From contig JBANSL010000017.1 of assembly GCA_037127255.1 (NCBI GenBank), forward strand, positions 44,401,745 to 44,465,744: a stretch of 64,000 nucleotides of DNA. Reading direction: 5' to 3'. Source of the stretch: Persicaria tinctoria. Lineage: Eukaryota > Streptophyta > Magnoliopsida > Caryophyllales > Polygonaceae. Position 1 is the stretch's first letter, and each line of letters starts with the position of its first letter. The notes below the pieces were generated by a model. The model was not told the DNA's origin. It did no database searches and worked only from the letters and a program-made list of their open reading frames with translations. The position numbers and the translations under genes are program-made. Below are positions 1,900 to 63,071 of this stretch, piece by piece.

Positions 1900-3301
1900 T
1901 GATGTAGGAGGAAATTGAGACTTGCAATAAAATATAAATAAATCAAAGCAAACCAGATTTCGTCCTTTGCAAATAATTACAAGACTCCCTCCCTATGCAG
2001 TAGTGGGAAGTCAGGATTGATCCACGAGGAAGCGTGTCAGCGGATCCTAGGCAGTGGAGAAATCTCACGGACAGAAGTCGACCACAGGTTGTCGATCTCG
2101 ACTAAGGCTAACCGACAGAAGATCGGACAAGTCGGACAGCACAGCAGCAGTCACAGATGGTTGTCGATATCGAGTAAGTTCTACTCGATATCTAGTAAGT
2201 TCTACTCGGTATCGAGTAAACTCGTCGATGTCGAGGATGGTCTTGTCGAGTACCTGCACAGGAGAAGCTACGACGATCTGGGATCGAAAATCAGTAACTC
2301 GATATCGACCAGAAGTTGTCGATATTGAGAAAGGCAGAAATTTAAAACGAAAGAAAGTAAAGACAAGGCTTTGAAGGACTTAGAAATAAATTTATGTAAA
2401 AGACTTCCAAGATTGGGGTTTGCGACAACAATAACCAAGCATGCATAAGGCAAGAATAAAACAGATAATCATGTAACTTGCATCGAAGGATTAAGCTTTC
2501 GCCTTTTCCAACAATTAGACAACTTTTTCAAGAAACCATAATTGTCTCTACTGATTTTATGTTTACAATCGAAGTTGTTAGCATGGACCTCCTATTAATG
2601 GGTAATAAACATATAACAGGTAGCAGATGCTCAAAACATGATAAAAGTCGGATCTTTACCTCAAACACGCAGTGCTATCGTCGGCCTCGGCCCAACCGTA
2701 GAAGTTGGTGGACTACTCACGCTTCATTGCAATTGCAGACATTGATTGAAAGGAAATAACTACTTGCATTAAATCAAACAGAGCTTACAACCAAAGAAAG
2801 CCAATTCCGCTCTCGCTTCACCAACTCCTCTTGGCCACTCACTCTCTCTCTCTACCTCTATGTAACTCATTTTCTTTGTGATGGAATGAACAAAACTCAG
2901 CCCCCTAAGGCTTTATTTATAGTGCTCAAACCCCGCTAATCAAGGAAAGAACAACTATATCTATATCTAAATCTCTTTATCTAAAAGCTTAAAGATAAAT
3001 AAATGGAATAACACAAATAAATCCAAAAAGGAAAGTATATCTAAAGTAGCAAAATATCTTCTTGTGTGGGTAGATCTTCTCTTGATAGAACTTGGACAGA
3101 ATCGGACTTCTTTCATCCCAAGCAAAGCCAAAACCATGTAGGACAGCTCAAACCGCGTAACACGGTCTAGGATGGCGCTCCTCGATATCGAGTAAAGTAC
3201 TCGATATCGAGTAAAGTTGGTGTCGACTTCGGCTTCAGCGGCATGCTCGAGTAGCTGGTCCTCGACATGGCTCGGGTGCACGCTTCTGGTGTTGTCGATA
3301 T
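1900..3301 (-). repeat. E3 3' LTR, outer part (interrupted by E2)
   Basis: This part aligns by eye with 25784-26815 and is interrupted by E2 at the GATAT site. It carries GATATC-type palindromic words (TCGATATCGA) near 2163-2225, 2295-2325 and 3180-3215, and a TATA-like element (minus TATAAATA) near 2915. It keeps about 370 bases, roughly 2589-2950, that the partner LTR lacks. Confidence 0.9.
3297..3301. repeat. Target-site duplication of E2 (GATAT), left copy
   Basis: GATAT precedes the E2 end here and follows its other end at 20583-20587. The target is the centre of a GATATC palindromic word of the E3 LTR; the uninterrupted site is near 26797-26815. Confidence 0.93.
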
Positions 3302-3532
3302 TGTTGTTAGGAGGAAATCGAGACTTGCAATATTAAAATAGAAATAAATCACAGCAAACCAGATTCCGTCCTTTGCAAATAATTACAAGACCTCCTCCTG
3401 ATGCAGCAGCGGGAAGTCAGGATCGATCCACGAGGAAGCGTGTCAGCGGATCCTAGGTAGCGGTGAAAATCTCACGAACGTCGACAACAGTGGTACTCGA
3501 CCTCGACTAAAGGTTAGTCGACAGGGGTCAGG
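3302..3532 (-). repeat. E2 3' LTR, outer part (interrupted by E1)
   Basis: This part matches 18463-18693 almost base for base, including the stretch next to the E1 insertion site. The rest of this LTR resumes at 12986. Confidence 0.92.
3528..3532. repeat. Target-site duplication of E1 (TCAGG), left copy
   Basis: TCAGG flanks E1 on both sides (3528-3532 and 12981-12985). The empty site with a single TCAGG is present in the other E2 LTR near 18687-18692. Confidence 0.95.
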
Positions 3533-3803
3533 TGTTGTGAGCCTAATTTGCCATGTTTTACAGTTACTTTTATATCGATTTCTGCATATATTGCATACAT
3601 TTGGGTTAGAATAATACAGAATCTGTGTAGTTTACACTTATTTGCAATATATGGAGGTCTACACAAGTTTTGGTTATATTTCACAGAAATCGGACGCACT
3701 TTGGAGCTAAAAGGACTCATGGAGAAGCTAAAAATGGTGCAGCTGGAGAAAAGGCCATTTTTCACCATTCTTCGTTCTGAATCAAGCTTCGATGTCTTCA
3801 TGA

Positions 3804-3880
3804 GAGTTGTAGCCCTCGGAAAGAGCTTTCCAACGCATGGTCATATCCGTCGATCCGACGAACGAGGACTCGGGAAACTG
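3804..3880 (+). repeat. Conserved ~75-bp LTR box next to the word array
   Basis: The block contains GGAAAGAGCTTTCC and ACGCATGGTCATATCCGT, both near-palindromic. It recurs at about 10987-11060, 54184-54260, 58404-58480 and 61650-61725 in the same LTR position. It is absent from E2, E3 and E4 LTRs. It occurs inverted relative to the LTR in the solo LTR (40108-40180) and in element X. Confidence 0.75.
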
Positions 3881-3904
3881 CGTTTCAAGAACAGAGCAGA
3901 AAGC

Positions 3905-4420
3905 TGAGAAAACTCTACTCGAGATCGACTAGACTCTACTCGATCTCGACGAGCCCTGGTCGAGCAGACCTGGTCGAGTAGAGCTGATCGAGGACACTGA
4001 GTCAGAGACAACCCGACTCCTGGAACCCTACTCGATCTCGAGTACCCCTGGTCGAGATCGAGGAGCCATGTCCGGAGTCGACTAGCTGTGCCGAGCCGAG
4101 AAGCCGAGGACGAAGACGCAGACCACCTCTACTCGATCTCGACGAGCTCTAGTCGAGATCGACTAGCCCCGATTCCAGATCCGAGCCTGTCGAGTAGAGC
4201 CACCCGAGAAGACGCAGTCGACATAGCCAGTCTACTCGACCTCGACGAGCCCTTGTCGACATCGACGAGAACCGTCAGTCCAGAGTCCGAGCTTGTCGAG
4301 CAGAGAAGCCAGCCAAGACCAGTCGACTAGGATTCCTACTCGAGATCGACAAGGCTCTTGTCGAGATCGAGTAGACTTCCCGAAGCCGCGTTACTCGGTT
4401 TTGACGAATCCTACTCGAAG
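3905..4420 (+). repeat. Palindromic word array in U3 (TCGA-NN-TCGA, centre CT/AG)
   Basis: About two dozen words of the form TCGATCTCGA, TCGAGATCGA or TCGACATCGA, plus half-words such as GTCGAG, are packed in about 500 bases. They are often paired and often have TAC or GTA on the outside (CTACTCGATCTCGACGAG). Each full word is 10-16 bases and palindromic or nearly so. The array lies upstream of the TATA box, so it is in U3. The same array is at about 11090-11600 in the other LTR. Confidence 0.85.
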
Positions 4421-4611
4421 TGGGATTGCGTGGGCGCGAAGATTGCCGATTCTATCCAAATACATCATGAAGGAAGAGATCTATCCATTAAAGACATTTA
4501 GATATATTTAGATTTAATTTCTTTATTGCTTTTATTTATCATTAAGTATTTAGACATAGTTTTAGATATAGATAGAGATATTCTTTCCTAGATTAGCTAG
4601 GGAATGAAGCC

Positions 4612-4619
4612 TATAAATA
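4612..4619 (+). promoter_or_regulatory. TATA box of the E1 5' LTR
   Basis: TATAAATA in the context CCTATAAATAAAGCCCTAGG. The same phrase is at 11790-11797 (3' LTR), 38788-38795 (E4), 49706-49713 and 62236-62243 (Y) and 40747-40754 (solo LTR, TATAAATAGG). Its fixed place downstream of the word array supports it as the start of R. The exact transcription start is not visible. Confidence 0.7.
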
Positions 4620-5249
4620 AAGCCCTAGGGGGCTGATTTTCATTCAATTCAATTTTCAGAGAAAGACAAGTAGTTCCACAGAGAAGTTTAGGAGTTCTAA
4701 TGTTTAGGGTTTTGGCTTTCTGCGAAAGTTGATTGCCAGGATTGTAAAGGCTTTTGAATTTAGTTTTAATGCAATTTAGTTCTTTTCATCAATCAATGTC
4801 CGTTATTGCAATGAGGCGTGAGTAGTCCACCCACTTCTGGGGCTGGGGTGAGCCCGACGGTGGCCATGTGAGGCGATACGATAAAGGTCAGATCTTTTTG
4901 TGCGATTCATCTTCTATCCCTATGAGCATGATTCTTTTGCGAGAGTTGAAGGTGATCCTTGTTTGTGTTATTGAAGCGAAAGTGATCTTAATGCAACTTG
5001 GATTAATTATGTGAAAAAGGGTTAGTAACAATTAGGGTGTATGCGAAAGCCTCTATATGCCTATTTGTTAATGACGAAAGTTATTTGATGGAAAGCATGA
5101 TCTTTTATGCCTTTGTGTGTTACTTTGCATGGTTATCGTTGTGGTGTCGAAACCCTAGTCTTGGAAGTCTTTTATTATATTGATTTATTTCTGTCAAAAA
5201 TCTGAGTTTTAGTTTCGAATTTGCAATTTATATTTTCTGTCAATTCTTG

Positions 5250-5510
5250 TCGATACAGAGGAAAATCTTCTCGATCTCGAGTTGGTTGTACTCGATCTCG
5301 AGTACGCTTCGTCTAAGTCGAGTTGAGTTCTGTTCTGTTGTCGATTTCTGAAGTTTCTGTCTTGACTTGCCCTTGTTGATCTCGAGTTGACTTGGTCGAG
5401 ATCGAGTTGCCCTTGCCGGGTTTGCCTGTCTGCTGTGATTTCTGATTTTCTGTTGTCGACTGCTGTGGTCGATCTCGAGTAGCTGTTTGTCGAGATCGAC
5501 GAGCCCTTTG
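5250..5510 (+). repeat. Second palindromic word cluster downstream of the TATA box (R/U5)
   Basis: CTCGATCTCGAGTTGG, GTACTCGATCTCGAGTACG and relatives lie about 650-900 bases after the TATA box. The words are therefore in the transcribed leader as well as in U3. The E4 LTRs have GATATC words in the same place (about 39255-39305 and 47955-48000). Confidence 0.8.
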
Positions 5511-5803
5511 CTTTGCTTTTAGTTTCTGCTTTGCTTTGTCTTTCCTGTTTTACTTTGTTCTTTGCTTCTGCTTTTATTTCTGTTTCTTTCGTTGTTTCTG
5601 TGTTTCTGTCTTTTCTGCTGCTCTGTCTGTGAGAATTTACAGCTACCTGAGAACTGCTGACGTGCTTCCTTGTGGATTCGATCCTAACTATTCTCTTACT
5701 ACAACGGGAGGAAGTCTTGTATTTATTTGCTGAGACAGGGAAGTCAGTCTGAACTTTATTTCATATTTATTTCATACTTGACCATCCTCTTGCAACAACA
5801 AAT

Positions 5804-5883: not shown

Positions 5884-8800
5884 ATGCGTCGTTCTGATCA
5901 AACACCTGAGTTTGACGCCTTAGACGAACCGGAACGCCTTTTTCATATCAGAGCTAAACTACAGAGAGCCATGGCAGCTGTGGAGACACAAGAACAGCTG
6001 ATCGCTAGGCTTACCAGGGAATTAGCCGCTAAGGATGCTGCTATCACCGCTGAGAAAGCAGCAAGGGAACAAGCACAGGCTGAGCTTGCCCAATATCCAA
6101 CCACGGCAGAGGACTACATGCACCCAACCCTCGTCGTGCCTGAATCGGCGATTCTAATCCCTGAAAACTCTTTTGAAATTCGCACTCAATTTCTTATAGA
6201 GCTTAAAAATAATGCCTTTTATGGTAGATTTAATGAGTGTCCTCTTGAACATATTACAAACTTTTCTGACATGTGCCGTACTATTGCTGAAGGTACAACC
6301 CTGGAATATGTCAAGATGAAATCTTTTCGTTGGTCTCTCGCTGGGCCTGCACTGAAATGGCTGGAAGGGCTGAAAGCAAGATCACTCACAACCTGGGCCC
6401 AAGTAGAGCAAGAGTTTCTGAACAAATTCTTCCCACCTGCCAAAACAGCACATCTCCGCCAGAGAATCACCGCCTTCAAACAGAAGCAAGGGGAACCGCT
6501 GGCAAAGGCATAGGAGCGCTACAAGGAACTTCTGCGATCTTGCCCTACTCATGGACAGCCACCCTACGTCATTCAGGAGATCTTCTTCAATTCTCTTGAT
6601 CAAGTCACTAAGGACAGAATCAACTATTATACTCGCTATGAGTATCTAACAATGCCGCCAAGTGACGCATGGGGTGTGCTAGAGAAGCTCACTAACTACG
6701 ACAACAAGTATGGGTCTACTGCAACCTATGAAGAGAACCCATACGCCAGGCCAGCACCATCCATGCCCCTATATGAGCCACCTAAGGAGATTGATCCTGA
6801 TGTTAGGGAGCAGTACTACAGAGACCAGAATAAGAAGCTCATCAAGCAAGTAAAGTATCTCTCTGTCAACCAGCCTTGCATAGAATGCGGATTGCAAAGG
6901 CACACCACTCCTGAGTGCCCACACGCAGAACAAGTCAGGATGGCAGAGCATCATGAGGATGTAGCTTACGCCGGGGGCCCTAGTCGCTACATGGGGGACC
7001 AAAGGTTTCACCAACCACAATGGAACCAAGGTGTCCCTAGGAACCCCCCGCCCTACAGAGCTCCAGGACATCCGGAAAGGGAACAGAAAAAGGATGATAT
7101 ACAGACAGTCCTGGAGGAAATATGGAGAAATCACTCAGAAACTAGGCAGTCCTTCAACTCACTCTATACTCAGATGCAAGGTGTCAACTCTAGGCTTGGG
7201 GAAATTGATATCTGGCGGAAATCAGTTGATACACAGATTGGTCAGCTAGCAGCAGCAATCCCCAGACAGTCAGGGTCACTTCCAGGATCTTCAGAACCAA
7301 ATCCTAAGGGAAAGACTGGACACATCGCTGCTATAAAACTCAGAAGCGGCCATCAACTACAAGAGCCAGAGGTCGGAAAGCAGCAGAACGACGAGGAACA
7401 GCAAGTCGACCTCGACAAACCTGTAGTCGATCTCGACGAAGGCCTCATCGATCTCGAGGAGAACCTGCAAAAATCTTCGTCTGCACCGCACAGCGACTCG
7501 ACTACGCCCAACCTGGTCGATGTCGACAAGACTCTAGTCGATGTCGAGGAGCCCCTGGTCGGCATAGAGCAGCCTGCAGCACCTCCGACGTCCGTTCTGG
7601 CTCCGAATCAGAAAAAGAAGCTGCCTTTCCCCACAAAATCTCTAAAGGACCCAACAGAAAAGAAATTTCAGTGCTTCATTAAGATGCTTCAGAAACTCAA
7701 GGTCACCATCCCCTTCACAGAAGCTCTCAATGAAATGCCATCTTATGTCAAGTTCCTGAAGGAGATTTTGAGCAAAAAGCGATCGATGGCTGAAATCACA
7801 GAGGAGTGCAGCCACTTGGACATATTGGAGAAGAGGCCGGATCCAGGTAAGTTTGCTATAACCATTGGATTTGGTCCATACAAAATTAATGCCTTATGTG
7901 ATCTTGGAGCTAGTGTGAGTATAATGCCTTTAACAATTTGGTCCAAGATTAAAATAGGTGCCCTAGAGCCTGTGGATGCTAGACTATACATGGCCAACAA
8001 CACGGTGGTCATTCCAACAGGCATGGTGGATAATGTGCCAGTACAAGTAGGTAAATTCTTTGTCCCTGCTGATTTTCTAGTTGTTGATATGCAAGAAGAT
8101 CCTGCTTGTCCAATTATTTTAGGAAGACCATTCTTGGCGACGGTGGATGCCAACATAAGCGTTAGGAAAGGAGTGCTCACCTTCAACATCAGCGATGAGG
8201 TAATTGAGTATTCCTTTAATAAAACTGAAAGGCATACAGGTCCGATGGAAGAGGTCAAATCTATCTCAGCTGGCTACATCACCTGCGGGGAACCCAAGGT
8301 CAGAAATATGACCCCTGAGGAGCTAGAAAAGAGGGACATGGAGGCCCAGGTGGAGGAGATCATGGCAATCCTCAAGGAGAACACAGAGAATCCAATTGAC
8401 ACAGACCAAGGTAAGTCGTTGTGGATTAATTATTTTTCGGATGCCTTGACAGGGACTAAGTATGGGGTCAAGATCGACCAAGGCTCCTCGACATCGAGTA
8501 GAACCCTAGTCGATCTCGACCAGACCAAGGAGACTCCACCAGCACCAGCATCGTCGAGCAGCGAACCAGACAAACCAGGCTCGTCGATCTCGACTAGACT
8601 TGTCGAGGTCGACCACCCCTCGACGGCCTCGGCTTCATCTCCCTTGACGCTGACTCCACCAGACGGCCAGAGCTCGTCGACCTCGACCACCTTTGTCGAG
8701 ATCGACCACCACCCAGCGCCACCAGATCAGCCTCCCTCGATGAGCAAGCCACCAGGAGCAGAACCCTTGTCGTGGTCGACCAGTCTTGTCGAGATCGACA

Positions 8801-9231
8801 AGCCATCGTCTTCGTCGATTTCTGCATCTTCGAGCAGACCACCACCAGAACCTGCAGTCTTGTCGAGATCGACTAGCCCTAGTCGAGATCGACCAAATAC
8901 AGTAGTCCCCGATTCCGTCTCTGCGAAGGTAAGCCAAGGTATGGATCTTTCTTCCCCTATTTCAATTAATGATTTATCTATACATGGGAGAGGTCTGCCT
9001 TGGTATGTGCGATTGTGCAGGATATCCAATGATGAGCCTAAAGAATATGAAGTTGGAGACAGGCTCTATGTCTCTAAATCAAAGGATCATTGGTTTCCTA
9101 ACAAATTCAACAAAAAGCGAATGGGACCTTTCGTGGTGAACAAGATCCATTCTGGAGGATTACAGCTGAGGGACAAGAATGGAGTCTTATTTGAGGCCCA
9201 AGCTACATGGGCCCTGCAGATGCCACCTTGA
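5884..9231 (+). pseudogene. gag-pro: E1 gag - zinc knuckle - protease - integrase-tail fusion, one in-frame TAG
   Basis: One frame of 1115 codons starts at ATG 5884, shortly after the primer site. Residues ~20-65 are helical and charged. About 75-230 is the Ty3/Gypsy capsid (Retrotrans_gag; FEIRTQFLIELKNNAFYGRF, AQVEQEFLNKFFPPAK). A CCHC knuckle is at C332, C335, H340, C345. Residues ~490-560 are an acidic linker of VDLD/VDVE repeats made by palindromic words. The retropepsin has D673 (LCDLGASVSIMP) and IILGRPFLAT near 744. A Ser/Pro-rich linker with VEIDH repeats follows. The tail (~1055-1115; EYEVGDRLYV, MGPFVV) resembles the integrase C-terminal GPF/Y domain. Reverse transcriptase, RNase H and integrase core are missing without loss of frame. 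Codon 210 is TAG (6511-6513) where relatives have TGG. The frame is otherwise intact, so it may be nearly functional or read through. Confidence 0.88.
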
Positions 9232-10708: not shown

Positions 10709-12980
10709 TGTTGTGAGCCTAATTTGCCATGTTTTACAATTACTTTTATATCGATTTCGGCATACATTGCATACATTTGGGTTAGAATAATACAGAATCT
10801 GTGTAGTTTACACTTATTTGCAATATATGGAGATCTACACAAGTTTTGGTTATATTTCACAGAAATCGGACGCACTTTGGAGCTAAAAGGAGACTCATGG
10901 AGAAGCTAAAAATGGTGCAGCTGGAGAAAAGGCCATTTTTCACCATTCTTCGTTCTGAATCAAGCTTCGATGTCTTCATGAGAGTTGTAGCCCTTGGAAA
11001 GAGCTTTCCAATGCATGGTCATATGCCTCAATCCGACGAACGAGGACTCGGGAAACTGCGTTTCAAGAACAGAGCAGAAAGCTGAGAAAACTCTACTCGA
11101 GATCGACTAGACTCTACTCGATCTCGACGAGCCCTGGTCGAGCAGACCTGGTCGAGTAGAGCTGATCGAGGACACTGAGTCAGAGACAACCCGACTCCCG
11201 GAACCCTACTCGATCTCGAGTACCCCTGGTCGAGATCGACGAGCCATGTCCGGAGTCGACGAGCTGTGCCGAGCCGAGAAGCCGAGGACGAAGACGCAGA
11301 CCACCTCTACTCGATCTCGACGAGCTCTAGTCGAGATCGACGAGCCCCGAGTCCAGATCCGAGCCTGTCGAGTAGAGCCACCCGAGAAGACCCGGTCGAC
11401 AAAGCCAGTCTACTCGACCTCGACGAGCCCTTGTCGACATCGACGAGCACCGTGAGTCCAGAGTCCGAGCTTGTCGAGCAGAGAAGCCAGCCAAGACCAG
11501 TCGACCAGGATTCCTACTCAAGATCGACAAGGCTCTTGTCGAGATCGAGTAGACTTCCCGAAGCCGCGTTACTCGGTTTTGACGAATCCTACTCGAAGTG
11601 GGATTGCTTGGGCGCGAAGATTGCCGATTCTATCCAAATACATCATGAAGGAAGAGATCTATCCATTAAAGACATTTAGATATATTTAGATTTAATTTCT
11701 TTATTGCTTTTATTTATCATTAAGTATTTACATATAGTTTCAGATATAGATAGAGATATTCTTTCCTAGATTAGCTAGGGAATGAAGCCTATAAATAAAG
11801 CCCTAGGGAGCTGATTTTCATTCAATTCAATTTTCAGAGAAAGACAAGTAGTTCCACAGAGAAGTTTAGGAGTTCTAAGGTTTTTAGGGTTTTGGCTTTC
11901 TGCGAAAGTTGATTGCCAGGATTGTAAAGGCTTTTGAATTTAGTTTTAATGGAATTTAGTTCTTTTCATCAATCAATGTCCGTTATTGCAATGAGGCGTG
12001 AGTAGTCCACCCACTTCTGGGGCTGGGGTGAGCCCGACGGTGGCCATGTGAGGCGATACGGTAAAGGTCAGATCTTTTTGTGCTATTCATCTTCTATCCC
12101 TATGAGCATGATTCTTTTGCGAGAGTTGAAGGTGATCCTTGTTTGTGTTATTGAAGCGAAAGTGATCTTAATGCAACTTGGATTAATTATGTGAAAAAGG
12201 GTTAGTAACAATTAGGGTTTATGCGAAAGCCTCTATATGCCTATTTGTTAATGACGAAAGTTATTTGGTGGAAAGCATGATCTTTTCTGCCTTTGTGTGT
12301 TACTTTGCATGGTTATCGTTGTGGTGTCGAAACCCTAGTCTTGGAAGTCTTTTATTATATTGATTTATTTCTGTCAAAAATCTGAGTTTTAGTTTCGAAT
12401 TTGCAATTTATATTTTCTGTCAATTCTTGTCGATACAGAGGAAAATCTTCTCGATCTCGAGTTGGTTGTACTCGATCTCGAGTACGCTTCGTCTAAGTCG
12501 AGTTGAGTTCTGTTCTGTTGTCGATTTCTGAAGTTTCTGTCTTGACTTGCCCTTGTCGATCTCGAGTTGACTTGGTCGAGATTGAGTTGCCCTTGCCGGG
12601 TTTGCCTGTCTGCTGTGATTTCTGATTTTCTGTTGTCGACTGCTGTGGTCGATCTCGAGTAGCTGTTTGTCGAGATCGACGAGCCCTTTGCTTTGCTTTT
12701 AGTTTCTGCTTTGCTTTGTCTTTCCTGTTTTGCTTTGTTCTTTGCTTCTGCTTTTATTTCTGTTTCTTTCGTTGTTTCTGTGTTTCTGTCTTTTCTGCTG
12801 CTCTGTCTGTGAGAATTTACAGCTACCTGAGAACTGCTGACGTGCTTCCTTGTGGATTCGATCCTGACTATTCTCTTACTACAACGGGAGGAAGTCTTGT
12901 ATTTATTTGCTGAGACAGGGAAGTCAGTCTGAACTTTATTTCATATTTATTTCATACTTGACCATCCTCTTGCAACAACA
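10709..12980 (+). repeat. E1 3' LTR
   Basis: This is the near-identical partner of 3533-5800, with box, word array (about 11090-11600), TATA box 11790-11797 and U5 word cluster (about 12430-12690). It is followed directly by TCAGG and the resumed E2 LTR. Confidence 0.95.
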
Positions 12981-12985
12981 TCAGG

Positions 12986-14605
12986 CACAGTCGAACACAG
13001 CGCAACAGCAGTTACAGAGGCTCGTCGATACCGAGAAGGCCTACTCGATGTCAAGGACAGTCTTTGTCGACTTCGGGTTGGGCTCGTCGAGTTCCTGCAC
13101 AAGTAAGCTACAGCGACTTTGGGTCGAAGATTAGTAGTCGAGATCGACCAGGCTTGGTCGAGATCGACGAGGGCAGAAATTAAAACGAAACGAAAGAAAG
13201 TAAAGACAATTGCTTTGGGACTGCGAAATTGTCTTAATGTAAAAGGCTTCCAAGATTGGGGTTTGCAACAACGATAACCAAGCATGCATAAGGCAGAACC
13301 AAACAAATTATCATGTAAATCGCATCAAAGGACTAAGCTTTCGCCTTTTCCAACAATTAGACAACTCTTTCAAGAAACCCGAATTGTCTCTACTAATTTT
13401 AGGTTTATAATCCAAGTTGTAAACCGTCTATGTGGAACTACTTCTCTACCTCTGAATTTGAATTGAATAAAACTGAGCCCCATGGGCTTTATTTATAGCC
13501 TTCTAATCCTTGCTACTCAAGGATAGAATATCTATATCTATATCTAAAACTATATCTAAAATGCTTAAGGATAAATAAAAGCAATAAGGAAATTAAATCT
13601 AAATATATTAAAATGTCTTAAAGTGGATAGATCTCCTCTTCCATGACGTGTCTTGATGATTTTGGATAGAATCGGCAATCTTCGAGCCCAAGTAATCCCA
13701 CACCGAGTAGGATTCGTCAAACCGCGTCACACAGCTTCTGGAATCGTCGTCAATGTCGACAAGGGTCTTATCGATATCGAGTAGGAGTGTTGTCGACTGG
13801 GCCGATCTCGGCTAGCTGGTGCTCGATGTGGCTCGGACTTGGCTCACGAGTGTACTCGATCTCCACGACAGTCTTGTCGACATCGAGTAGGAATGTTCAT
13901 CGACTAGGTCTTCTCGGGTGGCTCTGCTCGACATGCTCGGGCACGGCTTCCGGGCTCCTGGGCGTCGTCGATCTCAACTAAGGCTCATCGAGATCGACTA
14001 GGGTTGTGGTCAAGGATGGCTCTCTGGTGATGTCGAGGACTCTTCCTCGGCATGGACTCGAACATGCGCTAGGTGGCTCGTCGATCTCGACAAGGTCTCA
14101 TCGAGATCGAGTAGAGATGTGCTGGCGTCTTCGTCCTCGGCTTCTCAATCAGCTCCTCTTCTCATCGACTCCGGGTGTGGTGCTGAGGTGTCGTCGATCT
14201 CGACTAGGTCTTGTCGAGATCGAGTTGTGTTCCGGGAGTCGGGTTGGTCTTGCTCAGCTTTCTCGATCAGGCTTTGTCGACCAAGTCTGCTTGGGCTCTC
14301 TACTCGAGATCGAGTAAGGTGTACTCGACATAGGGTAGCCCTGGCTTTAGCTCGGTTTGTCCTGGTTCTGTACTCTCGGATTCTAGACTTTTGTAGTTGT
14401 TTCCCGAGCTTTTCTGACCTTCCTTAGAATTGCTGTAAAACGTCTCGAATTCTGCGAATTTAAACAGAAACTGGTGTAGATTCCATAATTTGGCAAATAA
14501 ACATAAACTACATAGATTTTGTACTATCTTAGCCCAAATGAATGAAATGTATGCAGAAAACGATATTAAAGTTACATTAAAATATGACAGATTCAGCTCA
14601 CAACA
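12986..14605 (-). repeat. E2 3' LTR, inner part (after E1)
   Basis: This part continues the LTR begun at 3302-3532 and matches 18694-20582. It lacks 266 bases relative to its partner (19128-19393), with a clean junction at 13420/13421. The lost segment lies on the leader side of the TATA box, which is kept. Word array at about 13740-14330 on the GATCTC/GACATC pattern. It ends CTCACAACA next to the purine tract. Confidence 0.92.
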
Positions 14606-18462: not shown

Positions 18463-20582
18463 TTTGTTAGGAGGAAATCGAGACTTGCAATAATAAAATA
18501 GAAATAAATCACAGCAAACCAAATTCCATCCCTTGCAAATAATTACAAGACCTCCTCCTGATGCAGCAGCGGGAAGTCAGGATCGATCCACGAGGAAGCG
18601 TGTCAGCGGATCCTAGGTAGCGGTGAAAATCTCACGAACGTCGACAACAGTGGTACTCGACCTCGACTAAAGGTTAGTCGACAGGGGTCAGGCATAGTCG
18701 AACACAGCGCAGCAGCAGTTACAGGGGCTCGTCGATATCGACAAGGCCTACTCGATGTCGAGGACAGTCTTTGTCGACTTCGGGTTGGGCTCGTGGAGTT
18801 CCTCCACAAGTAAGCTACAACGACTTTGGGTCGAAGATCAGTAGTCGAGATCGACCAGGCTTGGTCGAGATCGACCAGGGCAGAAATTAAAACGAAGCGA
18901 AAGAAAGTAAAAACAATTTCTTTGGGACTGCGAAATTAACTTAATGTAAAAAGCTTCCAAGATTGGGGTTTGCAACAACGATAACCAAGCATGCATAAGG
19001 CCGAACCAAACAAATTATCATGTAAATCGCATCAAAGGACTAAGCTTTCGCCTTTTCCAACAATTAGACAACTCTTTCAAGAAACCCTAATTGTCTCTAC
19101 TAATTTTAGGTTTATAATCCAAGTTGTTAGCATGGATCTCCATTAGACGGGTAATAAACACATAAACAAGTAGGAAAATGCTCAAAACATGATAAAGGTC
19201 GGATCTTTACGTCAAACACGCATGGCTATCGTTGGGCTCGCCCCAACCCTAGAAGTGGGTGGACTACTCACGCCTCATCGCAAACTCAGACATTGATTGA
19301 AAGGAAATAACTTGCATTAACTAAATTCAAAGACTTTACAATCCCGGCAATCAACTTTCGTAAACTGCCAAAACCTTAACCTTCGAACTCCCTAAACCGT
19401 CTATGTGGAACTACTTCTCTACCTCTGAAATTGAATTGAATAAAACTGAGCCCCATGGGCTTTATTTATAGCCTTCTAATCCTTGCTACTCATGGATAGA
19501 ATATCTATATCTATATCTAAAACTATATCTAAAATGCTTAAGGATAAATAAAAGCAATAAGGAAATTAAATCTAAATATATCTAAATGTCTTAAAGTGGA
19601 TAGATCCCCTCTTCCATGATGTGTCTTGATGATTTTGGATAGAATCGGCAATCTTCGAGCCCAAGTAATCCCACACCGAGTAGGATTCGTCAAACTGCGT
19701 CACACAGCTTCTGGAATCGTCGTCGATGTCGACATGGGTCTTATCGATATCGAGTAGGAGTGTTGTCGACTGGGCCGATCTCGGCTAGCTGGTGCTCGAT
19801 GTGGCTCAGACTTGGCTCACGAGTGTACTCGATCTCGACGACAGTCTTGTCGACATCGAGTAGGAATGTTCATCGACTAGGTCTTCTCAGGTGGCTCTGC
19901 TCGACATGCTCGGGCACGGCTTCCGGGCTCCTGGGCGTCGTCGATCTCGAATAAGGCTCATCGAGATCGACTAGGGTTGTGGTCAAGGATGGCTCTCTAG
20001 TGATGTCGAGGACTCTTACTCGGCATGGACTCGGACAGGCGCTAGGTGGCTCGTCGATCTCGACAAGGTCTCATCGAGATAGAGTAGAGATGTGCTCGGC
20101 GTCTTCGTCCTCGGCTTCTCAATCAGCTCCTCTTCTCATCGACTCCGGGTGTGGCGCTGAGGTGTCGTCGATCTCGACAAGGTCTTGTCGAGATCGAGTT
20201 GTGTTCCGGGAGTCGGGTTGGTTTGGCTCAGCTTTCTCGACCAGGCTTTGTCGACCAAGTCTGCTTGGGCTCTCTACTCGAGATCGAGTAAGGTGTACTC
20301 GACATAGAGTAGCCCTGGCTTTAGCTCGGTTTGTCCTGGTTCTGTACTCTCGGATTCTGGACTTCTGTAGTTGTTTCCCGAGGTTTTCTGACCTTCCTTA
20401 GAATTGCTGTAAAATGTCTCGAATTCTGCGAATTTAAACAAAAACTGGTGTAGATTCCATAATTTGGAAAATAAACATAAACTACATAGATTCTGTACTA
20501 TCTTAGCCCAAATGAATGAAATGTATGCAGAAAACGATATTAAAGTTACTGTAAAAAAATATGACAGATTCAGCTCACAACA
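18463..20582 (-). repeat. E2 5' LTR (uninterrupted)
   Basis: This is the full-length copy (about 2120 bp). It shows the empty E1 insertion site near 18687-18692, the minus-strand TATA phrase near 19460-19475 and word arrays at about 18725-18880 and 19715-20310. The inner end is slightly mutated (TTTTTGTTAGG against TGTTGTTAGG), so its inner edge is uncertain by 2-3 bases. Confidence 0.9.
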
Positions 20583-25783: not shown

Positions 25784-27376
25784 TTTGGTAGGAGGAAATT
25801 GAGACTTGCAATAAAATATAAATAAATCAAAGCAAACCATATTTCGTCCTTTGCAAATAATTACAAGACTCCCTCCCTATGCAGTGGTGGGAAGTCAGGA
25901 TCGGTCCACGAGGAAGCGTTTCAGCGGATCCTAGGCAGCGGAGAAATCTCACGGACAGAAGTCAACCACAGGTTGTCGATCTCGACTAGGGCTAGTCGAC
26001 AGAACATCGGACAAGTCGAACAACGCAGCAGCAGTCACAGATGGTTGTCGATATAGAGTAAGTTCTACTCGATATCAAGTAAACTTGTCGATGTCGTGGA
26101 TGGTCTTGTCGAGTACCTGCACAGGAGAAGCTACGACGATCTGGGGTCGAAAATCAGTAACTCGATATCGACCAGAAGTTGTCGATATCAAGAAAGGTAG
26201 AAATTTAAAACGAAAGAAAGTAAAGACAAGGCTTTGTAGGACTTCGAAATAAACTTTATGTAAAAGACTTCCAAGATTGAGGTTTGCAACAACAATAACC
26301 AAGCATGCATAAGGCAAGAATAAAACATGTAATCATGTAACTTGCATCAAAGGATTAAGCTTTCGCCTTTTCTAAAAATTAGACAACTTTTTCAAGAAAC
26401 CCTAATTGTCTCTACTGATTTTATGTTTACAATCCAAGTTGTTAGCATGGAATAACATAAATAACTATATCTAAATCTCTTTATCTAAAAGCTTAAAGAT
26501 AAATAACTGGAATAACATAAATAAATCCAAAAAGGAAATTATATCTAAAGTAGCAAAATATCTTCTTGTGTGGGTAGATCTTCTCTTGATAGAACTTGGA
26601 TAGAATCGGACTCCTTTCGTCCCAAGGAAACCCAAAACCGTGTAGGACAGCTCAAACCGCGTAACGCGGTCTAGGATGGCGCTCCTCGATATGGAGTAAA
26701 GTACTCGATATCGAGTAAAGTTGGCGTCGACTTCAGCTTCAGCGGCATGCTCGAGTAGTTGGTCCTCTACATGGCTCGGGTGCGCGCTTCTGGTGTTGTC
26801 GATATCGAGTAGATTACTCGATATCGAGGAAATTGGCTTCATCGACTTGGCTGGCTTGGCTTTGGTCGAGCAACTCTCTTAGACATTGCTCGGACATGTG
26901 ACTTTGGTCTTGTCGATATCGAGGAGAGTCATCGATATCGAGTAAGTGGTGCCCGGCATGTCTTCATCTTCGGCTTCTCGATCGGCTTATGTTCCTCGAC
27001 TCCGGGTTGGTCTTTAGGGCTTTGTCGATATCAAGTAGAGTACTCGATATCGAGTAACTTTCTGGAGTCGGGTAACTTTGCCTTCAGTTCCTCGATCTGG
27101 TGCTCCTTGATCAGTGATGTGCCCGGACATTGTTTGTCGATATCGACGAAAAGAAGTCGATATCGGGTAATCTTCAGCCTCCGTCTTTGCTTCTTGGTTT
27201 TTTCCCGAAATGGCTCCAAATTTTGTAATATTAAACCAAAACTTATGTAGATCTCCATTTCTTGCAAATAAGCACATATTATATAAATTCAACATATTCC
27301 CATCCCGAACTATGCAAAGTGTATAGAATATGGAGCTAAAATGTGCATTTCAACATGGCTATTTTAGTGGACATCA
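25784..27376 (-). repeat. E3 5' LTR, promoter segment deleted
   Basis: Matches 1900-3301 plus 20588-21158 but lacks about 370 bases at 26450, including the TATA phrase. The junction carries AATAACATAAATAACTATAT, similar to sequence about 60 bases away, which suggests a templated repair filler. It contains the uninterrupted E2 target (near 26797-26815). It is followed by AGCGG and the host pseudogene. Confidence 0.88.
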
Positions 27377-41558: not shown

Positions 41559-44500
41559 TCTACCACCCGAGTTTGACAGCTTAGACGAACCAGAGCGTTA
41601 CCTACACATTCACTCTAAACTAAAAAGGATCATGGCGGCCAATGAAACACAAGAACAGCTGATTGCCAGGCTAACAAGGGAGCTAGCCGCTAAGGATACC
41701 ACTATAGCCAATGAAAGGGCAGCGAGGAAACAAGAAGCTGAGCGCGCAAGGCAAGCAGAAGCTGAGTTTGCCCAATATCCAACTACTGTTGAGGATTATA
41801 TGCATCCAACCCTCGTCGTGCCTGAATCAGCGATTCTTATCCCTGAAAACTCTTTTGAAATTCGCACTCAATTTCTTATAGAGCTTAAAAATAATGCCTT
41901 TTTTGGTAGGTTTAATGAGTGTCCTCTTGAACATATTACAAACTTTTCTGACATGTGCCGTACTCTTGCTGAAGGTACAACTTTGGAATATGTCAAGATG
42001 AAGTCTTTCCGCTGGTCGCTGGCTGGACCTGCACTGAAGTGGCTTTAAGGGCTGAAACCAAGATCACTAACAACATGGGCCCAAGTAGAGCAAGAGTTTC
42101 TGAACAAGTTCTTCCCACCCGCCAAAACAACACATCTCCGCCAGAAAATCACCGCCTTCAAACAGAAGCAAGGGGAACCGCTGGAAAAGGCATGGGAACG
42201 CTACAAGGAACTTCTGCGATCTTGCCCTACTCATGGACAGCCACCCTACGTCATTCAGGAGATCTTCTTCAACGCTCTTGATCAAATCACTAAGGACATA
42301 ATCAACCATTATACTCGCTATGAGTATCTTACAATGTCGCCAAGTGACGCATGGGGTGTGCTAGAGAAGCTCACCAACTACGACAACAAATATGGGTCTA
42401 CTGCAACTTATGAAGAGAACCCATACGCCAGGCCAACACCTTCCATGCCCCTCTATGAGCCTCCTAAGGAAATTGATCCGGATGTAAGGGAACAGTACTA
42501 CAGAGATCAGAACAAGAAGCTCATAAAGCAAGTAAAGTATCTTTCTGTCAACCAGCCTTGCATTGAATGTGGATCACAGCAGCACACCATTCATGAGTGC
42601 CCACACACAGAGCAAGTCAGGCTGGCAGAGCACCACGAGGAGGTAGCTTACGCAGGGGGTCCCAATCGCTACATAGGGGACCAAAGGTTTTAGCAACCAC
42701 AATGGAACCAAGGTGTCCCTAGGAACCCCCCGCCCTATAGAGCTCCAGGACATCCGGAAAGGGACCAGAAAAAGGATGATATACAGACAGTCCTGGAGGA
42801 AATATGGAGGAATCACTCAGAAACTAGGCATTCCTTCAACTCCGTCTACACTCAGATGCAAGGGGTCAAATCTAGGCTTGGAGAGATTGATATATGGCGA
42901 AAATCAGTTGATACACAGATTGGTCAGCTGGCAGCAGGAATCCCCAGACAGTCAGGTGCGCTCCCTGGGTCTTCAGAACCAAATCCTAAGGGAAAAACTG
43001 GGCACATCGCTGCTGTAAAACTCAGAAGCGGCCATCAGCTGCAAGAGCCAGAGGTCGGAAAGCAGCAGAACAACGAGGAACAACCACTCGACATCGACAA
43101 CACTCTAGTCGACATCGAGGAGGGCCTAGTCGGCGTAGAGGAGAAACTTCAGAAACCCTCGTCTGCACTGCACATCAACTCGACTGCACCCAATTTGGTC
43201 GAGATCGACAAGGGGCTACTCGACATCGACGACGGTCAACCCGAGATCGAGAAAGCTGCAGCACCTCCGACATCTGTTCTGGCTCCAAATCCGAAAAAGA
43301 AACTGCCTTTCCCCACAAAATCTCCAAAGGACCCGGCAGAAAAAAAAATTCAGCGCTTCATCAAGATGCTTCAGAAACTCAACGTCACCATCCCTTTCAC
43401 TGAAGCTCTCAATGAAATGCCCTCATATGTCAAGTTCCTGAAGGAGATTTTGAGCAAAAAGCGATCGATGGCTGAAATTACAGAGGAATGCAGCCATTTG
43501 GACATACTGGAGAAGAGGCCAGATCCAGGTAAGTTTGCTATAACCATTGGATTTGGTCCATATAAAATTAATGCTTTATGTGATCTTGGAGCTAGTGTAA
43601 GTATAATGCCTTTAACAATTTGGTCCAAGATTAAGATAGGTGCCTTGGAGCCTGTGGATGCTAGACTATATATGGCCAACAACACAGTGGTCATTCCAAC
43701 AGGCATGGTGGACAATGAGCCAGTACAAGTAGGTAAATTCTTTGCCCCTGCTGATTTCCTAGTTATTGATATGCAAGAAGATCCTGCTTGTCCAATTATT
43801 CTAGGGAGACCCTTCTTGGCGACGGTGGATGCCAACATAAGCGTAAGGAAATGAGTGCTCACCTTCAACATCAGCGATGAGGTAATTGAGTATTCCTTTA
43901 ATAAAACTGAAAGGCATACAGGTCCAATGGAAGAGGTGAAATCTATCTCAGTTGGCTACATCACCTGCGGAGAACCCAAGGTCAGAAATATGACCCCTGA
44001 GGAGCTGGAAAAAAGGGACATGGAGGCCCAGGTGGAGGAGATCATGGCAATCCTAAAGGAGGACGCAGAAAATCCAATCGACACAAATGAAGGTACGTCA
44101 TTATGGATTAATTATTTTTCGGATGCCTTGACAGGAACTAAGTATGGGGTCAAGATCGACCAAGACTCCTCGACATCGAGGACCCTAGTCGATCTCGACA
44201 AGAAATGGAAGCCTCCACCAGCACCAGCGTCATCGATTAGCAACACAGAAGCTGAGGGCTACTCGACATCGAGTAAGCTACTCGACATCGACCACCACCC
44301 GACTTCCTCGACTTCGCCTTCTTCAACGCTGACTCCACCAGACGAACCAGGCTCATCGATCTCGACTAGGCTTATCGAGATCGACCACCAACAGGCTCCA
44401 CCAGCTCCTGCTTCCTCGACGCTGCAGCCACCAGGAGCAGAACCCTACTCGACATCGAGTAGTCTACTCGATGTCGACAAGCCCTCGATTTCACCAGCTT

Positions 44501-44910
44501 CTGCATCCTCGAGCAGCCCACCACCAGAACCTGCAGACTCGTCGAAATCGACTAGCCCTAGTCGAGATCGACCAAACACAGTGGTCCCCGATTCCGTCGC
44601 TGCAAAGGTAAGCCAAGGTATGGATCCCTCTTCGCCTATTTCCATTAAAGATCTATCTATACATGGAAGAGGTTTGCCTTGGTATGTGCACTTATGTAGG
44701 ATATCCAATGATGAGCCCAAGGAGTATGAAGTTGGAGACAAGCTCTATGTCTCTAAATCAAAGGATAATTGGTTCCCTATCAAATTCAACAAGAAGCGGA
44801 TGGGACCTTCCGTGGTGAACAAGATCCATTCTGGAGGGTTACAGCTGATGGACAAGAATGGAGTCTTATTTGAGGCCCAAGCTACATGGGCCCTGCAAAT
44901 GCCACCTTGA

Positions 44911-46360: not shown

Positions 46361-48278
46361 TGTTGTGAGCTAAATCTGTCATGTTTTACAGTAACTTTTA
46401 TATCGTTTTCTGCATACATTACATACATTTGGGTTAGATAGTACAGAATCTATGTAGTTTATGTTTATTTGCCAAATTATGGAATCTACACCAGTTTCTG
46501 TTTAAACTCGCAGAATTCGAGACGTTTTACAGCAACTCTAAAGAAGGTCAGAAAAGCTCGGAAAACCACTACAGAAGTCCAAGGTCAAAGAAGCAGCGGA
46601 ACCAGTCGAATAAAGTTGAGAGCCCAGGCTACTCGATCTCGAGTAGACCTTACTCGATCTAGACGAGCATGTCCGAGCACAAGCCTTGTCGACTAGGAGC
46701 AGTGTCGAGAGCCAGACCAACCCAGCTCCGGAGCCCTACTCGATCTCGAGGACAACCTAGTCGAGATCGATGACACTGAGACGCCACACCCGGAGTCGAC
46801 AAGAAGAGAAGCTGATCGAGAAGCCAAGGACGAAGACCTTATCGAGATCGATGAGCCACCATGCCCTAGTCCGAGTCCACGCCGAGGAGGAGTCCTCGAC
46901 ATCACCAGAGGACCATCTTCGAGTACAACTCTACTCGATCTCGAGGAACCCTAGTCGAGGTCGACGACGCCCAGAGCCCAGATCCAAGCCATGTCGAGCA
47001 GAGTCACCCGAGAACACCAGTCGACGACGAATCCTAGTCGATGTCGACGAGCCCTTGTCGATGTCGAGTAGACCAAGTCTTGGAAACGCGTCGCCGTGAG
47101 CAGTCCGAGTAGAGTTGGGAATCCTTGGGGCCGAAGAAATCCGAGATTGCCGAGATTTATCAACATGAAGAGATATTCCCTAGTTTAGATTTATCTTTTC
47201 CATTTAGATTTAATTTCTTTATCGCTTTTATTTATCATTAAAGTTTTAGATATAATTTTAGATATAGATAGAAGATTATATCTTTGATTAGCAAGGAATA
47301 GAAGGCTTTAAATAAAGCCCTAGGGGCTAGACATTCATTCATTCCATTTCAGAGGTAGAGAAATAGTTCCACAGAGACAGTTTAGGAGTTCTAAGGTTTG
47401 TAAGGTTTTGGCATTCTGCGAAAGTCGATTGCCGGGATTGTAAAGGCTTTTGAATATAGTTTAATGCAAGTTTCTTTTTATACATCAATGTCTGCGATTG
47501 CGATGAGGCGTGAGTAGTCCACCCACTTCTGGGGCTGGGGTGAGCCCGACGGTGGCCATGTGAGGAGATGCAGTAAAGGTCAGATCTTTTTATGCAATTC
47601 GTCTTCTATCCCTATGAGCATGATTCTTTTGCGAGACTTGAAGGTGATCCTTGTTTGTATTATTAAAGCGAAAGTGATCTTAATGCAACTTGGGTTAATT
47701 ATGTGAAAAGGGTTAGTAACAATTAGGGTTTATGCGAAAGCCTCTATATGCCTATTTGTTAATAACGAAAGTTGTTTGATGGAAAGCATGATCTTTTATG
47801 CCTTTATGTGTTACTTTGCATGGTTATCGTTGTGGTGTTGATACCCTGGCCTTGGAAGTCTTTTATTATATCGAATTTATTTCTGTCGAAAATCTGAGTA
47901 TTGGTTCGAAATTTACAATTTAAAGTTTCTGTCTTTCTTGTCGACACAGAGGAGAGTCTCGTCGATATCGAGTAGGACCTTAGTCGATATCGAGTACGGT
48001 TTTGGTCTATGTCGAGTTGATTTTCTGCTTCTGTCGTCGATTTGCAGTTTTTGTCTTTTACTGCTCCTTGTCGATCTCGAGTACCTGCTTGTCGAGATCG
48101 AGTACGCTGCTGCCTTGTTTTGTTCTTTACTTTCTTTCGTCATCTTCTGTTTTGCTTTTATTTCTTTGTTTTTGTCTTTTCTGCTGCTTGTCTGTGAGAA
48201 TCTGTTGCTACCTAAGAACTGCTGACGTGCTTCCTCGTGGATTCGATCCTGACAACCTTCTACTACAACGGGAGGAAG
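46361..48278 (+). repeat. E4 3' LTR, truncated at its right end
   Basis: It matches 37780-39671 up to GGGAGGAAGT and lacks the last 110 bases or so. The TATA phrase has decayed to TTTAAATA near 47309. The cut joins element W directly with a one- or two-base overlap, which suggests an end-joined deletion. Confidence 0.88.
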
Positions 48279-58129: not shown

Positions 58130-59181
58130 TGATGTGAGCCTAATTTGCCATGTTTTACACTTACTTTTATATCGATTTCTGTATGCATTTCATGTATTTG
58201 GGTTAGAATAATACATAATTTTTGTAGTTTATGTTTATTTGCCATATATGCAGGTCTACACAAGTTTTTTTATATTTCGCAGAAATCGGACGCACTTTGG
58301 AGCTTAAAGGAAACTCATGGAGAAGCTAAGAATGGTGCAGCCGGAGAAAAGGCCATTTTTCACCATTCTCTGTTCTGAATCAAGCTCTAATGTCTTCATA
58401 AGAGTTGTAGCCCTTGGAAAGAGCTTTCCAATGCATGGTCATATGCGTCGATCTGACAAACGAGGACTCGGAAAAGTGCGTTTTAAGAACAGAGCAGAAA
58501 GCTGAGAGACTTAGTCGATATCGAGTTGATTTACTCGATATCGAGTAACCCAGATCGAGTAAAGACCCTAGAAATCGACAAGAGAAGTTGGGAGCTGGAG
58601 CAGGTTAGTCGATATCGACAAGAAGTATTCGATATCGAGAAAACACTTGGTCGATTTCCATGTCTAGAACCGAGATCGACGAAGCTGAGCACTGGGGAGC
58701 CGAGCAGAACTTAGTCGATATCGAGTAACTTTACTCAATATCGAGGACAACCCAAGTCGACATGTGTTATGTTGGCCAACATGGAGTTACTGAGCACAAG
58801 ACGAAGAAAATGGTAGTCGATATCGAGGACTCCTACTCGATATCGAGGACGTCTCAGTGGTGGATTCCGAGCTATCCGGGTATCTTGTTAAGTTTCTATC
58901 CCGAAGCCGATGGTGATATTTTCGAGACCAAATTCTATCCACATCTATCAAGAGCTATCAAGTTCAAGGAAGATTTATCCACATTAGATATTTTCCTTTT
59001 TTAATTATTAGATTTATTTCCTTTATTTATCAAGTTTTTATCTTAAGTAAGTAGATAGATAGATATAGATATAGATAGAATTTCTTTCCTAGAATAGCTA
59101 GGGAATGAAGCACTTAAAAAGGCCTTAGGGGGCTGATTTTCATTCATTTAAGCGAAGTCGTCTTCGGGCGCAAGGAGAAAG

Positions 59182-61369: not shown

Positions 61370-63071
61370 TGTTGTGCACCTAATTCGCCATGTTTTATAC
61401 TTAGTTTTATATCGATTTATGCATGCATTTCATTCATTTGGGTTAAAATAATATAGAATATTTGTAGTATATGTTTATTTTCCAATTATGGAGGTCTACA
61501 CAAGTTTTTGTTATATTTTGCAGAAATCGGACGCACTTTGGAGCTTAAAGGAAAGTCATGAAGAAGCTACGGATGGTGCAGCCGGAGAAAACACCATTTT
61601 TCACCATTCATCATTCTAAATCAAGCTTTGATGTCTTCATGAGAGTTGTAGCCCTCAAAGAGAGCTTTCCAACGCATGGTCATATGCGTCAATCCGACGA
61701 ACAAGGACTCGGAAAAGTGCATTTCAAGAACGGAGCAAAATGCTGAAAGTGCAGAGAACTAGTCGACGTCGACCAAACTGGTCGACGTCGAGTAACTTTT
61801 TGGTCGAATTGCCTCCCAAAAGTCGTGAACGAGCACCAGACCACTCGAGAGCACAATTCTAGTCGACGTCGAGGAGTTTAGGTCGACGTCGAGTACACCC
61901 TACGAGTCCGAATTCTACCCGAGCTCGAGTGCAACCCCGGAGGAAAAATTATACTCGACGTCAAGGATTTTGGTCAACGTCGAGGACAATCCAGTCGAGT
62001 CCGAGTCCGAGATCGAGTTGTGTCCGAGAAGATAGAGTAACTTGCAAGCCAAGAGATGTGGAGTTCTATCCATTCAAGAGAAGATCTATCAAGATGGAAG
62101 GGATTTATCCACTTTAGATATAGTTTCCTTATAGATCTATTTCTTTTATCAATTATGTTTTATCTTATGCTTTTGGATAGGAAGTTTTTAGATATAGATA
62201 TAGTTGTTCCTTCCTAGAATAGCTAGATGGAGCACTATAAATAAGGCCCTAGGGGGCTGATTTTCATTCATTCAAGCCAAGTCGTCTTTGGGCCCAAGCA
62301 GGAGGAGAGAGAGAGGACGCAAGGAGAAGGCGAGAGAGAGAGAGAAGACGCAAGGAGGAGGCGAGACAGACAGACAGAGAGAGAGAGAGAGGACGCAAGG
62401 AGGAGGAGAGAGAGAGGATGAACGTTTGGAAGGTTTTGTAAGTTTAAGTTTTATTTTTAATGTTAAAGTTAGTTTCTTTTATTATGTTTGCTTTCAAATT
62501 TCCTTCTTCTAGGGTCGGGGTGAGCCTGACGATAGCCATGCATGTTTGAGGTAAAGATTTGACCTTTATTGTGTTTTGATCATCCTCTGCCTTTTATATG
62601 TTTATTGCCTACTCAAAAGAATAAAGATTCATGTTAACAACTTGAATTATAAACATAAAATTGGTAGATACAATTAGGGTTACTTGAAAGGGTTATCTAA
62701 TTGTTGAAAAAGGCTAAAGCTTGCTCCTTTGATGTGATTACATAACTATTCTATCATATCTTTTGTGTGTTTGATTATTGTTGCATTGATCCCTTACCTT
62801 GGAAGTTTGCACCTTTATTACTTTATTTTATTATTTACATTCTGCACAAATTTTACCCAACACCAACCACCATTCCCTATCCGTCCCTCGACATCGACCC
62901 GTTCTTAGCCAACGTCGACAGCAAACCTCATCACCTTTTCCCGCTATTCCCGAACCCCTAAACCAACTAAACCCAGAACCGCTGACTTCTCTCCTAAGGA
63001 CGAACCTGACTCCACTATCCTATAGCGGGGTCTTGACTATAAATTTATTTGGTCGAGAAACCCTCTCGTCA
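61370..63071 (+). repeat. Y 3' LTR
   Basis: It starts TGTTGTGCACCTAATTCGCC and ends CCCTCTCGTCA. It has the box at 61650-61725, GACGTC words at 61760-61995 (two complete 12-base palindromes 7 bases apart at 61763-61793), TATA box 62236-62243 and a (GA)n leader at 62305-62420. GTGGT (63072-63076) would be its right target copy. Confidence 0.88.

What the first reader, a model, noticed from the sequence alone, without database searches (positions are those of the whole stretch)
3905..4420. LTRs are filled with short palindromic words of one grammar, TCGA-NN-TCGA, with family-preferred centres
Seen: E1, E2 and E4 U3 regions use mainly GATCTC/GAGATC, E3 and Z use GATATC (TACTCGATATCGAGTA is a perfect 16-base palindrome), Y and W use GACGTC. 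Words come as close pairs, lie both upstream of the TATA box and in the leader, and dominate up to 500 bases. Each word holds two CpGs in otherwise CpG-poor DNA. Inference: preference for one centre per family implies concerted spread of words within an element. Possible roles are multimerised binding sites for a host factor, or intermolecular RNA pairing that sorts elements by centre.
Basis: partly seen in the sequence, partly recalled or inferred. Interest (0 to 1): 0.88.

Follow-up and report, generated by a model that had tools for sequence, protein, structure and literature searches.

The report
Jumping genes packed with palindromic words
A plant genome holds 617,165 copies of a ten-letter mirror-symmetric DNA word; in the jumping genes read here it comes in pairs about 20 letters apart, in their control regions and inside their protein-coding stretches, and it is likely kept by selection as a landing site for a paired DNA-binding protein that has yet to be found.

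Summary
The window has 170 TCGANNTCGA words (0.85 expected); the 1.68-Gb genome has 617,165 (reversed control 43,496). They sit in non-autonomous Athila-like Ty3/gypsy elements in four places: U3, U5, the gag-protease linker and the linker where pol is missing. In the E1 ORF they fall in all three frames, 14 words against 1.5 after synonymous recoding, so the DNA word is kept, not a peptide. Between LTR families the U3 TCGA cores, and a T/A three bases outside, differ by 1-5% while centres and linkers differ by up to 25-30%; selection is the likely cause. The two half-sites (T-N-S-TCGA-B) vary independently, paired words lie 19-22 bp apart, and TC-to-GA order beats GA-to-TC 37,175 to 7,276. 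This fits a dimeric protein on DNA better than RNA pairing. Centres follow LTR family (all TA, all CG, or mixed) but evolve at linker rate. Two RT-bearing relatives carry the same layout with TCGG-CG-CCGA. Closest known: Sirevirus CGG-CCG palindromes and VANDAL anti-silencing motif arrays. The reader protein and the function are inferred, not shown.

The parts
3905..4420 (+). U3 word array of the E1 5' LTR, 10 words in five pairs (3919-4370)
5271..5499 (+). U5/leader word array of the E1 5' LTR, 5 words
7406..7547 (+). 5 words in the E1 ORF, in the linker before the protease, all frame 1
8488..8892 (+). 9 words in the E1 ORF, in the linker between protease and integrase tail; frames 0, 1 and 2
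11097..11548 (+). U3 array of the E1 3' LTR, 9 words
12451..12679 (+). U5 array of the E1 3' LTR, 5 words
3533..5800 (+). E1 5' LTR (TGTTG...CAACA); TATA at about 4611; primer site follows at 5803
10709..12980 (+). E1 3' LTR, 98.2% identical to the 5' LTR
6514..9231 (+). E1 ORF (905 aa): zinc knuckle, protease, then an integrase C-terminal tail; RT, RNase H and integrase core absent
18657..20287 (-). E2 right LTR arrays: U5 18657-18874 (5 words), U3 19723-20287 (10 words)
26705..27146 (-). E3 right LTR U3 array, 7 of 7 words with TA centre
43088..44571 (+). C element ORF arrays: 43088-43229 (4 words) and 44170-44571 (10 words)
46633..48101 (+). C element LTR arrays: U3 46633-47067, U5 47962-48101
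58515..58846 (+). Y U3 array, 7 of 7 words with TA centre; first words at the positions of those of E1
61763..61892 (+). X U3 array, 4 of 4 words with CG centre

Best explanation
The words are arrays of a two-fold symmetric DNA site, T-N-[C/G]-TCGA-NN-TCGA-[C/G]-N-A, that is likely bound as double-stranded DNA by a dimeric and probably host-encoded protein, which would help the element to be transcribed or to escape silencing. Shown: the motif, its spacing, its place in U3, U5 and two coding linkers, the near-freezing of its cores between LTR families, and the independence of its half-sites. Inferred: that selection keeps it, that a protein reads it, that two dimers sit side by side on each pair (20 bp, about two helical turns), and that binding activates or protects the element. 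Each LTR family would have drifted to its own centre, and one RT-bearing lineage to its own half-site (TCGG), as reader and words changed together.
For: Exact 6-bp TCGA spacing and pairs 19-22 bp apart. In the U3 array, over 528 LTR pairs, core divergence is 0.8-2.4% in every bin while linkers reach 25% and centres 30%; the T/A at +-3 behaves like the core (0.8-4.9%). CpGs kept in words 25/26, outside 34/60 (E1 against C). Words in seven ORFs: 4-16 against 0.24-1.7 after synonymous recoding (up to 3.4 if codon usage of the words is included), three frames used in three of the seven. Half-sites vary independently. TC>GA 37,175 against GA>TC 7,276 genome-wide. RT-bearing relatives have TCGRNNYCGA words in the same kinds of place and one of them shows no further sense ORF of 70 aa or more after the polyprotein, which speaks for a host reader; Sireviruses carry CGG-CCG dyads at the same LTR position.
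Against: No reader protein and no binding, methylation or expression data. LTR pairs are not independent, and L003-L030 were fetched through the array itself. Even in the youngest pairs the core changes less than the rest (0.015 against 0.023; other CpGs 0.064), so young and old behaviour differ less sharply than a pure 'selected only while active' picture would have it. With words masked by random letters only 3.5-5.2 of 12-15 words stay in register. Paired centres are complementary above chance. TCGGNNCCGA has no genome-wide excess (13,449 against 13,122). Family-specific centres fit an element-encoded reader at least as well as a host one.
Confidence: 0.5

Rival explanations
1. The words are read by a protein that the elements themselves encode (integrase, Gag, or an unseen accessory protein), as a family-specific anti-silencing or self-recognition code like VANC on VANDALs.
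For: Centres and half-sites differ by family within one genome; VANC targets are dense short motifs that evolve as tandem repeats together with the protein (PMC5735166, passages).
Against: In L072 no sense ORF of 70 aa or more follows the polyprotein (spliced genes would be missed). The 249-aa ORF of the Y element has no Pfam hit and its model is unusable (pLDDT 44.7).
Confidence: 0.25
2. The words act in RNA: packaging, dimerisation or hairpins recognised by Gag or by the silencing machinery.
For: All four arrays lie in the genomic RNA. The arrays fold better than shuffles (E1 U3 -196 against -154 kcal/mol). Paired centres are complementary above chance (38 of 87 against 15.2). Maize Sirevirus palindromes are small-RNA hotspots (PMC5311732 and PMC10760457, passages).
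Against: No complementarity at S or N within words, anti-complementarity of outer S in pairs, strong order bias TC>GA over GA>TC although both make the same hairpin, centres permutable without energy change, and a conserved T/A beyond a free N.
Confidence: 0.1
3. The arrays are by-products of tandem duplication and gene conversion without function.
For: Units of about 93-115 bp recur; centres are homogeneous in some arrays.
Against: Linkers diverge while the cores and the T/A at +-3 do not; words overprint coding in three frames; conversion would copy linkers too.
Confidence: 0.1
4. The words are integration targets for the elements' own integrase.
For: E2 sits exactly inside a TCGATATCGA word of E3, 5-bp duplication 26801-26805. 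A weak palindrome preference of Athila insertions is reported (PMC6911290, passages).
Against: By eye, 0 of 12 upstream and 0 of 6 downstream target flanks read lie in a word, nor do those of E1 (counted among the 12) or of the LTR at 37780. One search read one strand only, so most of the 12 minus-strand loci were not seen.
Confidence: 0.03

Closest known systems
Sirevirus repeated motifs (Ty1/copia), Bousios et al. 2010, PMC2829016 (section 9 read in full); 2016 follow-up not held, known only from citing passages
   Same: Many short dyads upstream of the TATA box, starting 200-400 bp into the LTR and spanning 300-500 bp (here 386-837 in E1); extra copies in an internal linker and at the start of a gene; element-specific consensus; TCGG-CG-CCGA of L072/L073 even has their CGG-CCG core.
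   Different: Here the elements are Ty3/gypsy; the main word is TCGA-N2-TCGA, in pairs 19-22 bp apart; it also fills U5 and two coding linkers in several frames.
VANDAL21 / VANC21 target motifs (YAGTATTAY), PMC5735166 (abstract and passages) and PMC10398659 (abstract and section list)
   Same: Dense short motifs restricted to a TE family, evolving in repeats, with different sequences in related families.
   Different: VANC motifs are non-palindromic, in one orientation, mainly non-coding, and read by a known TE protein of a DNA transposon; no reader is known here.
Athila-like Ty3/gypsy elements (name and tRNA-Asp primer type recalled)
   Same: Primer site, gag, aspartic protease; RT-bearing relatives in the genome with protease-RT-integrase order.
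   Different: Window elements lack RT, RNase H and integrase core. No TCGA or TCGG words in three more distant Athila-like loci, L043-L045.

Membership tests
Sirevirus repeated motif (RM) | Lies in a Sirevirus (Ty1/copia) | tested here: not met
   Protease-RT-integrase order in the related L072/L073 polyproteins is the Ty3/gypsy order
Sirevirus repeated motif (RM) | Cluster of dyads upstream of the TATA box in the LTR | tested here: met
   E1 words at LTR offset 386-837, TATA at 1078
Sirevirus repeated motif (RM) | CGG-CCG core | tested here: not met
   Window words are TCGA-NN-TCGA; TCGGNNCCGA is absent from the window, present in L072/L073
VANC target array | TE-encoded VANC protein that binds the motif | tested here: inconclusive
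   No accessory sense ORF of 70 aa or more in the stretch after the L072 polyprotein; other copies and spliced genes not searched
VANC target array | Loss of DNA methylation at bound elements | not testable with these tools
   No methylome held
Athila-like Ty3/gypsy | gag and aspartic protease of that type | tested here: met
   119 homologs, many with gag, RT and integrase domains; Retrotrans_gag 1.7e-16 on the E2 ORF; protease matches for E1 and C below Pfam's cut-off
Athila-like Ty3/gypsy | RT, RNase H and integrase core (autonomy) | tested here: not met
   E1 joins the protease region to a tail aligning with residues 1244-1284 of P0008; relatives with RT exist elsewhere in the genome

The most novel reading that the evidence does not exclude
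A family-specific address code: each Athila subfamily carries its own dyad word (half-site TCGA or TCGG, plus centre), overprinted on LTRs and on coding linkers in any frame and read as DNA by a co-evolving dimeric protein that decides which elements are activated or shielded together, non-autonomous riders included.
Probability: 0.3. Interest if true: 0.9.

Novelty: new variant of a known kind. Interest (0 to 1): 0.72.

Why it matters
Palindrome clusters in plant LTRs are best described for Sireviruses and are discussed as cis-regulatory sites or as hairpins. Here a second superfamily shows the same architecture, with the word at 617,165 copies genome-wide, with evidence that helps to separate DNA reading by a dimer from RNA pairing, and with words kept despite CpG decay and despite overlapping coding sequence.

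Tried and rejected
Integration targeting: one clear case, none among the other flanks read. Cis hairpins: disfavoured. Peptide-level selection: disfavoured by frames and recoding. Rfam families and tRNAs in the window: none reached threshold. The 249-aa ORF of element Y as reader: 5 homologs, no Pfam hit, unusable model. Viral contigs: 18 loci with a word pair, 2-6 words each, GC 0.53-0.70, judged chance. Literature: the six commonest word strings occur in 467 papers, of which 25 were listed, unrelated by title; no paper on such words in Athila-like LTRs was seen in the listings (open-licence library only). LOB-domain proteins as reader: a lead from memory, one listing, not followed. One search used minus-strand loci unturned and is superseded. 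One search timed out and was redone. The control TCGANNNTCGA genome-wide did not complete, nor was the same-orientation pair pattern.

Selection of data: L003-L030 were fetched by similarity to the array, so they favour conserved arrays. L033-L038 and L064-L067 were chosen because word listings pointed there. L039-L042 are four random 10-kb stretches and hold 0 words. L072 and L073 were chosen because their hits showed extra sequence between protease and RT. Of 35 hits, three became loci; of 66 matches, four became loci and two more regions were fetched.

Full report
What was checked. The finding says that LTRs here are filled with TCGA-NN-TCGA palindromes with family-preferred centres. The window is part of a 1.68-Gb genome of 221 contigs, a plant by its named homologs. 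3905-4420 has 10 words; shuffles of the stretch itself give 0.18. The window has 170 against 0.85 expected. The spacing is exact: two TCGA start 6 bp apart 170 times, and 4, 5, 7 or 8 bp apart 0, 1, 1 and 1 times. Genome-wide there are 617,165 words against 43,496 for the pattern read backwards. Four random 10-kb stretches had none, so the words are clustered; how many of the 617,165 lie in such elements was not counted.

What carries them. E1 is an LTR element (3533-5800 and 10709-12980, 98.2% identical) with a tRNA-Asp-type primer site (type recalled). Its ORF has relatives in many plants and ends in a piece that aligns to the C-terminus of an integrase polyprotein; RT, RNase H and the integrase core are missing. 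It is a non-autonomous Athila-like (name recalled) Ty3/gypsy element. E1 is nested in E2 and E2 in E3.

Where the words are. In E1: U3 (10) and U5 (5) of the 5' LTR, gag-protease linker (5), linker after the protease (9). C, L031 and L064-L066 also have words in LTRs and in protease-bearing ORFs or beside them. ORF words encode [VLI][DE][VLI][DE], S-x-S or SRxR according to frame; all three frames occur in E1, C43855 and L065, two in L031, L064 and L032, one in C42694. Synonymous recoding of these seven ORFs predicts 0.24 to 1.7 words (up to 3.4 with the words' own codons included) where 4 to 16 are found. Of 119 homologs of the E1 ORF, 5 have three of the encoded peptides and none has more. 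Two of five homologs of the Y ORF, from metagenome contigs, contain repeated LVDVD-type peptides, a hint at protein level only that the words exist elsewhere.

Conservation. Between LTR families, cores are 88-100% identical while the rest of U3 is 62-76%, centres 54-69% and flanks 60-72% (three comparisons, each read from both sides). Repeated words can mislead an aligner, so words were masked: with N, 7-11 of 11-15 words per comparison still fell in exact register; with random letters, means of 3.5-5.2 of 12-15. Inside the U3 array, over 528 LTR pairs, core divergence stays at 0.8-2.4%, while linkers go from 2% to 25% and centres from 0 to 30%; the T/A three bases outside the core behaves like the core (0.8-4.9%). 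In U5, cores reach 9.4%, the T/A 17% and linkers 55%. Over whole LTRs other CpG columns reach 43% and the core 6-7%. In the youngest pairs the core changes at 0.015, the rest at 0.023 and other CpGs at 0.064 (80 pairs); E1's own two LTRs differ at 3/128 core, 34/2108 other and 13/164 other-CpG sites. So after insertion words do decay, and much of the constraint shows between lineages; purifying selection on active elements is my inference. Pairs share history, and L003-L030 were found through the array, but the window-only comparisons agree (core 1/72, 2/80, 2/72; linkers 89/282, 110/337, 119/297).

How it is read. From 161 non-redundant of 690 words and 114 of 241 in eleven loci (seven of these also fed, four are new), each half-site reads T-N-S-TCGA-B toward the centre; 88 of 114 match the full motif. 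If base pairing mattered, free letters on the two sides should be complementary; they are not (S 53/114 against 56.9, N 26/114 against 31.8), and centres are self-complementary less often than chance (10/114 against 39.2). Paired words lie 18-22 bp apart, mostly 19-22. TC then GA occurs 37,175 times and GA then TC 7,276 times genome-wide, although both make the same hairpin. In the eleven loci the base after TCGA is most often T in outer (70/142) and G in inner half-sites (79/142); in the window it is T in both (57/90 and 45/90, G inner 28/90). I read this as a dyad of dyads, two protein dimers side by side. Against: paired centres are complementary above chance (38/87 against 15.2); one-centre families and the preferred TC>GA order can explain part of that.

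Family code. In sister U3s 86-88% identical up to the array the first words keep their places but the centres are GA/TC in E1, TA in Y and CG in X. E3 has TA in all seven U3 words and in 6 of 8 words of 23129-24160 in its interior. RT-bearing relatives L072 and L073 share U3 sequence with E1 up to the array (79-80%) and then carry TCGG-CG-CCGA: 15 and 14 TCGRNNYCGA words against 0.3 expected, pairs 20-21 bp apart, in U3 and in gag-protease, protease-RT and RT-integrase linkers; 13 and 12 of them in the ORF against 0.8 and 0.7 after recoding. L068, L070 and L071 have two TCGGTACCGA words each (L069 was not in that count), and three more distant loci have none. Genome-wide TCGGNNCCGA shows no excess (13,449 against 13,122), so that variant is local.

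Interpretation. A dimeric DNA-binding protein reading these words is the simplest account. A host protein is slightly favoured: L072 shows no extra sense ORF after the polyprotein, and unrelated Sireviruses carry CGG-CCG dyads at the same LTR position. Family-specific words favour a co-evolving reader, perhaps element-encoded as in VANDALs. What binding does is inferred: activation, or protection from silencing.

Verdict. Real, strongly non-random, apparently under selection, and a new variant of a known kind of architecture rather than a member of the Sirevirus or VANC systems.

Noticed in passing
29294-30882: Tandem array of a roughly 197-bp unit (seven copies of the reference, 65-100% identical), in AT-rich DNA.
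   Followed up: no
55878-56627 and L031:1817-2566 (-): A 249-aa ORF stands where gag would be in Y/W-type elements; only 5 homologs (all ENA/JGI contigs), no Pfam family, one predicted N-terminal helix and the rest low confidence.
   Followed up: partly
26799-26808 and 20582: E2 is inserted exactly inside a TCGATATCGA word of E3, with 26801-26805 duplicated.
   Followed up: partly
3301-3532, 12981-13420: Three-level nesting: E1 inside an LTR of E2, itself inside an LTR of E3.
   Followed up: partly
L044:1-81: An E1-type LTR end lies inside a more distant Athila-like element, so word-bearing elements insert into it.
   Followed up: no
L072:234-263 and L073:9642-9672: RT-bearing relatives carry a pair of TCGGCGCCGA words in U3 where E1 has its array.
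   Followed up: yes
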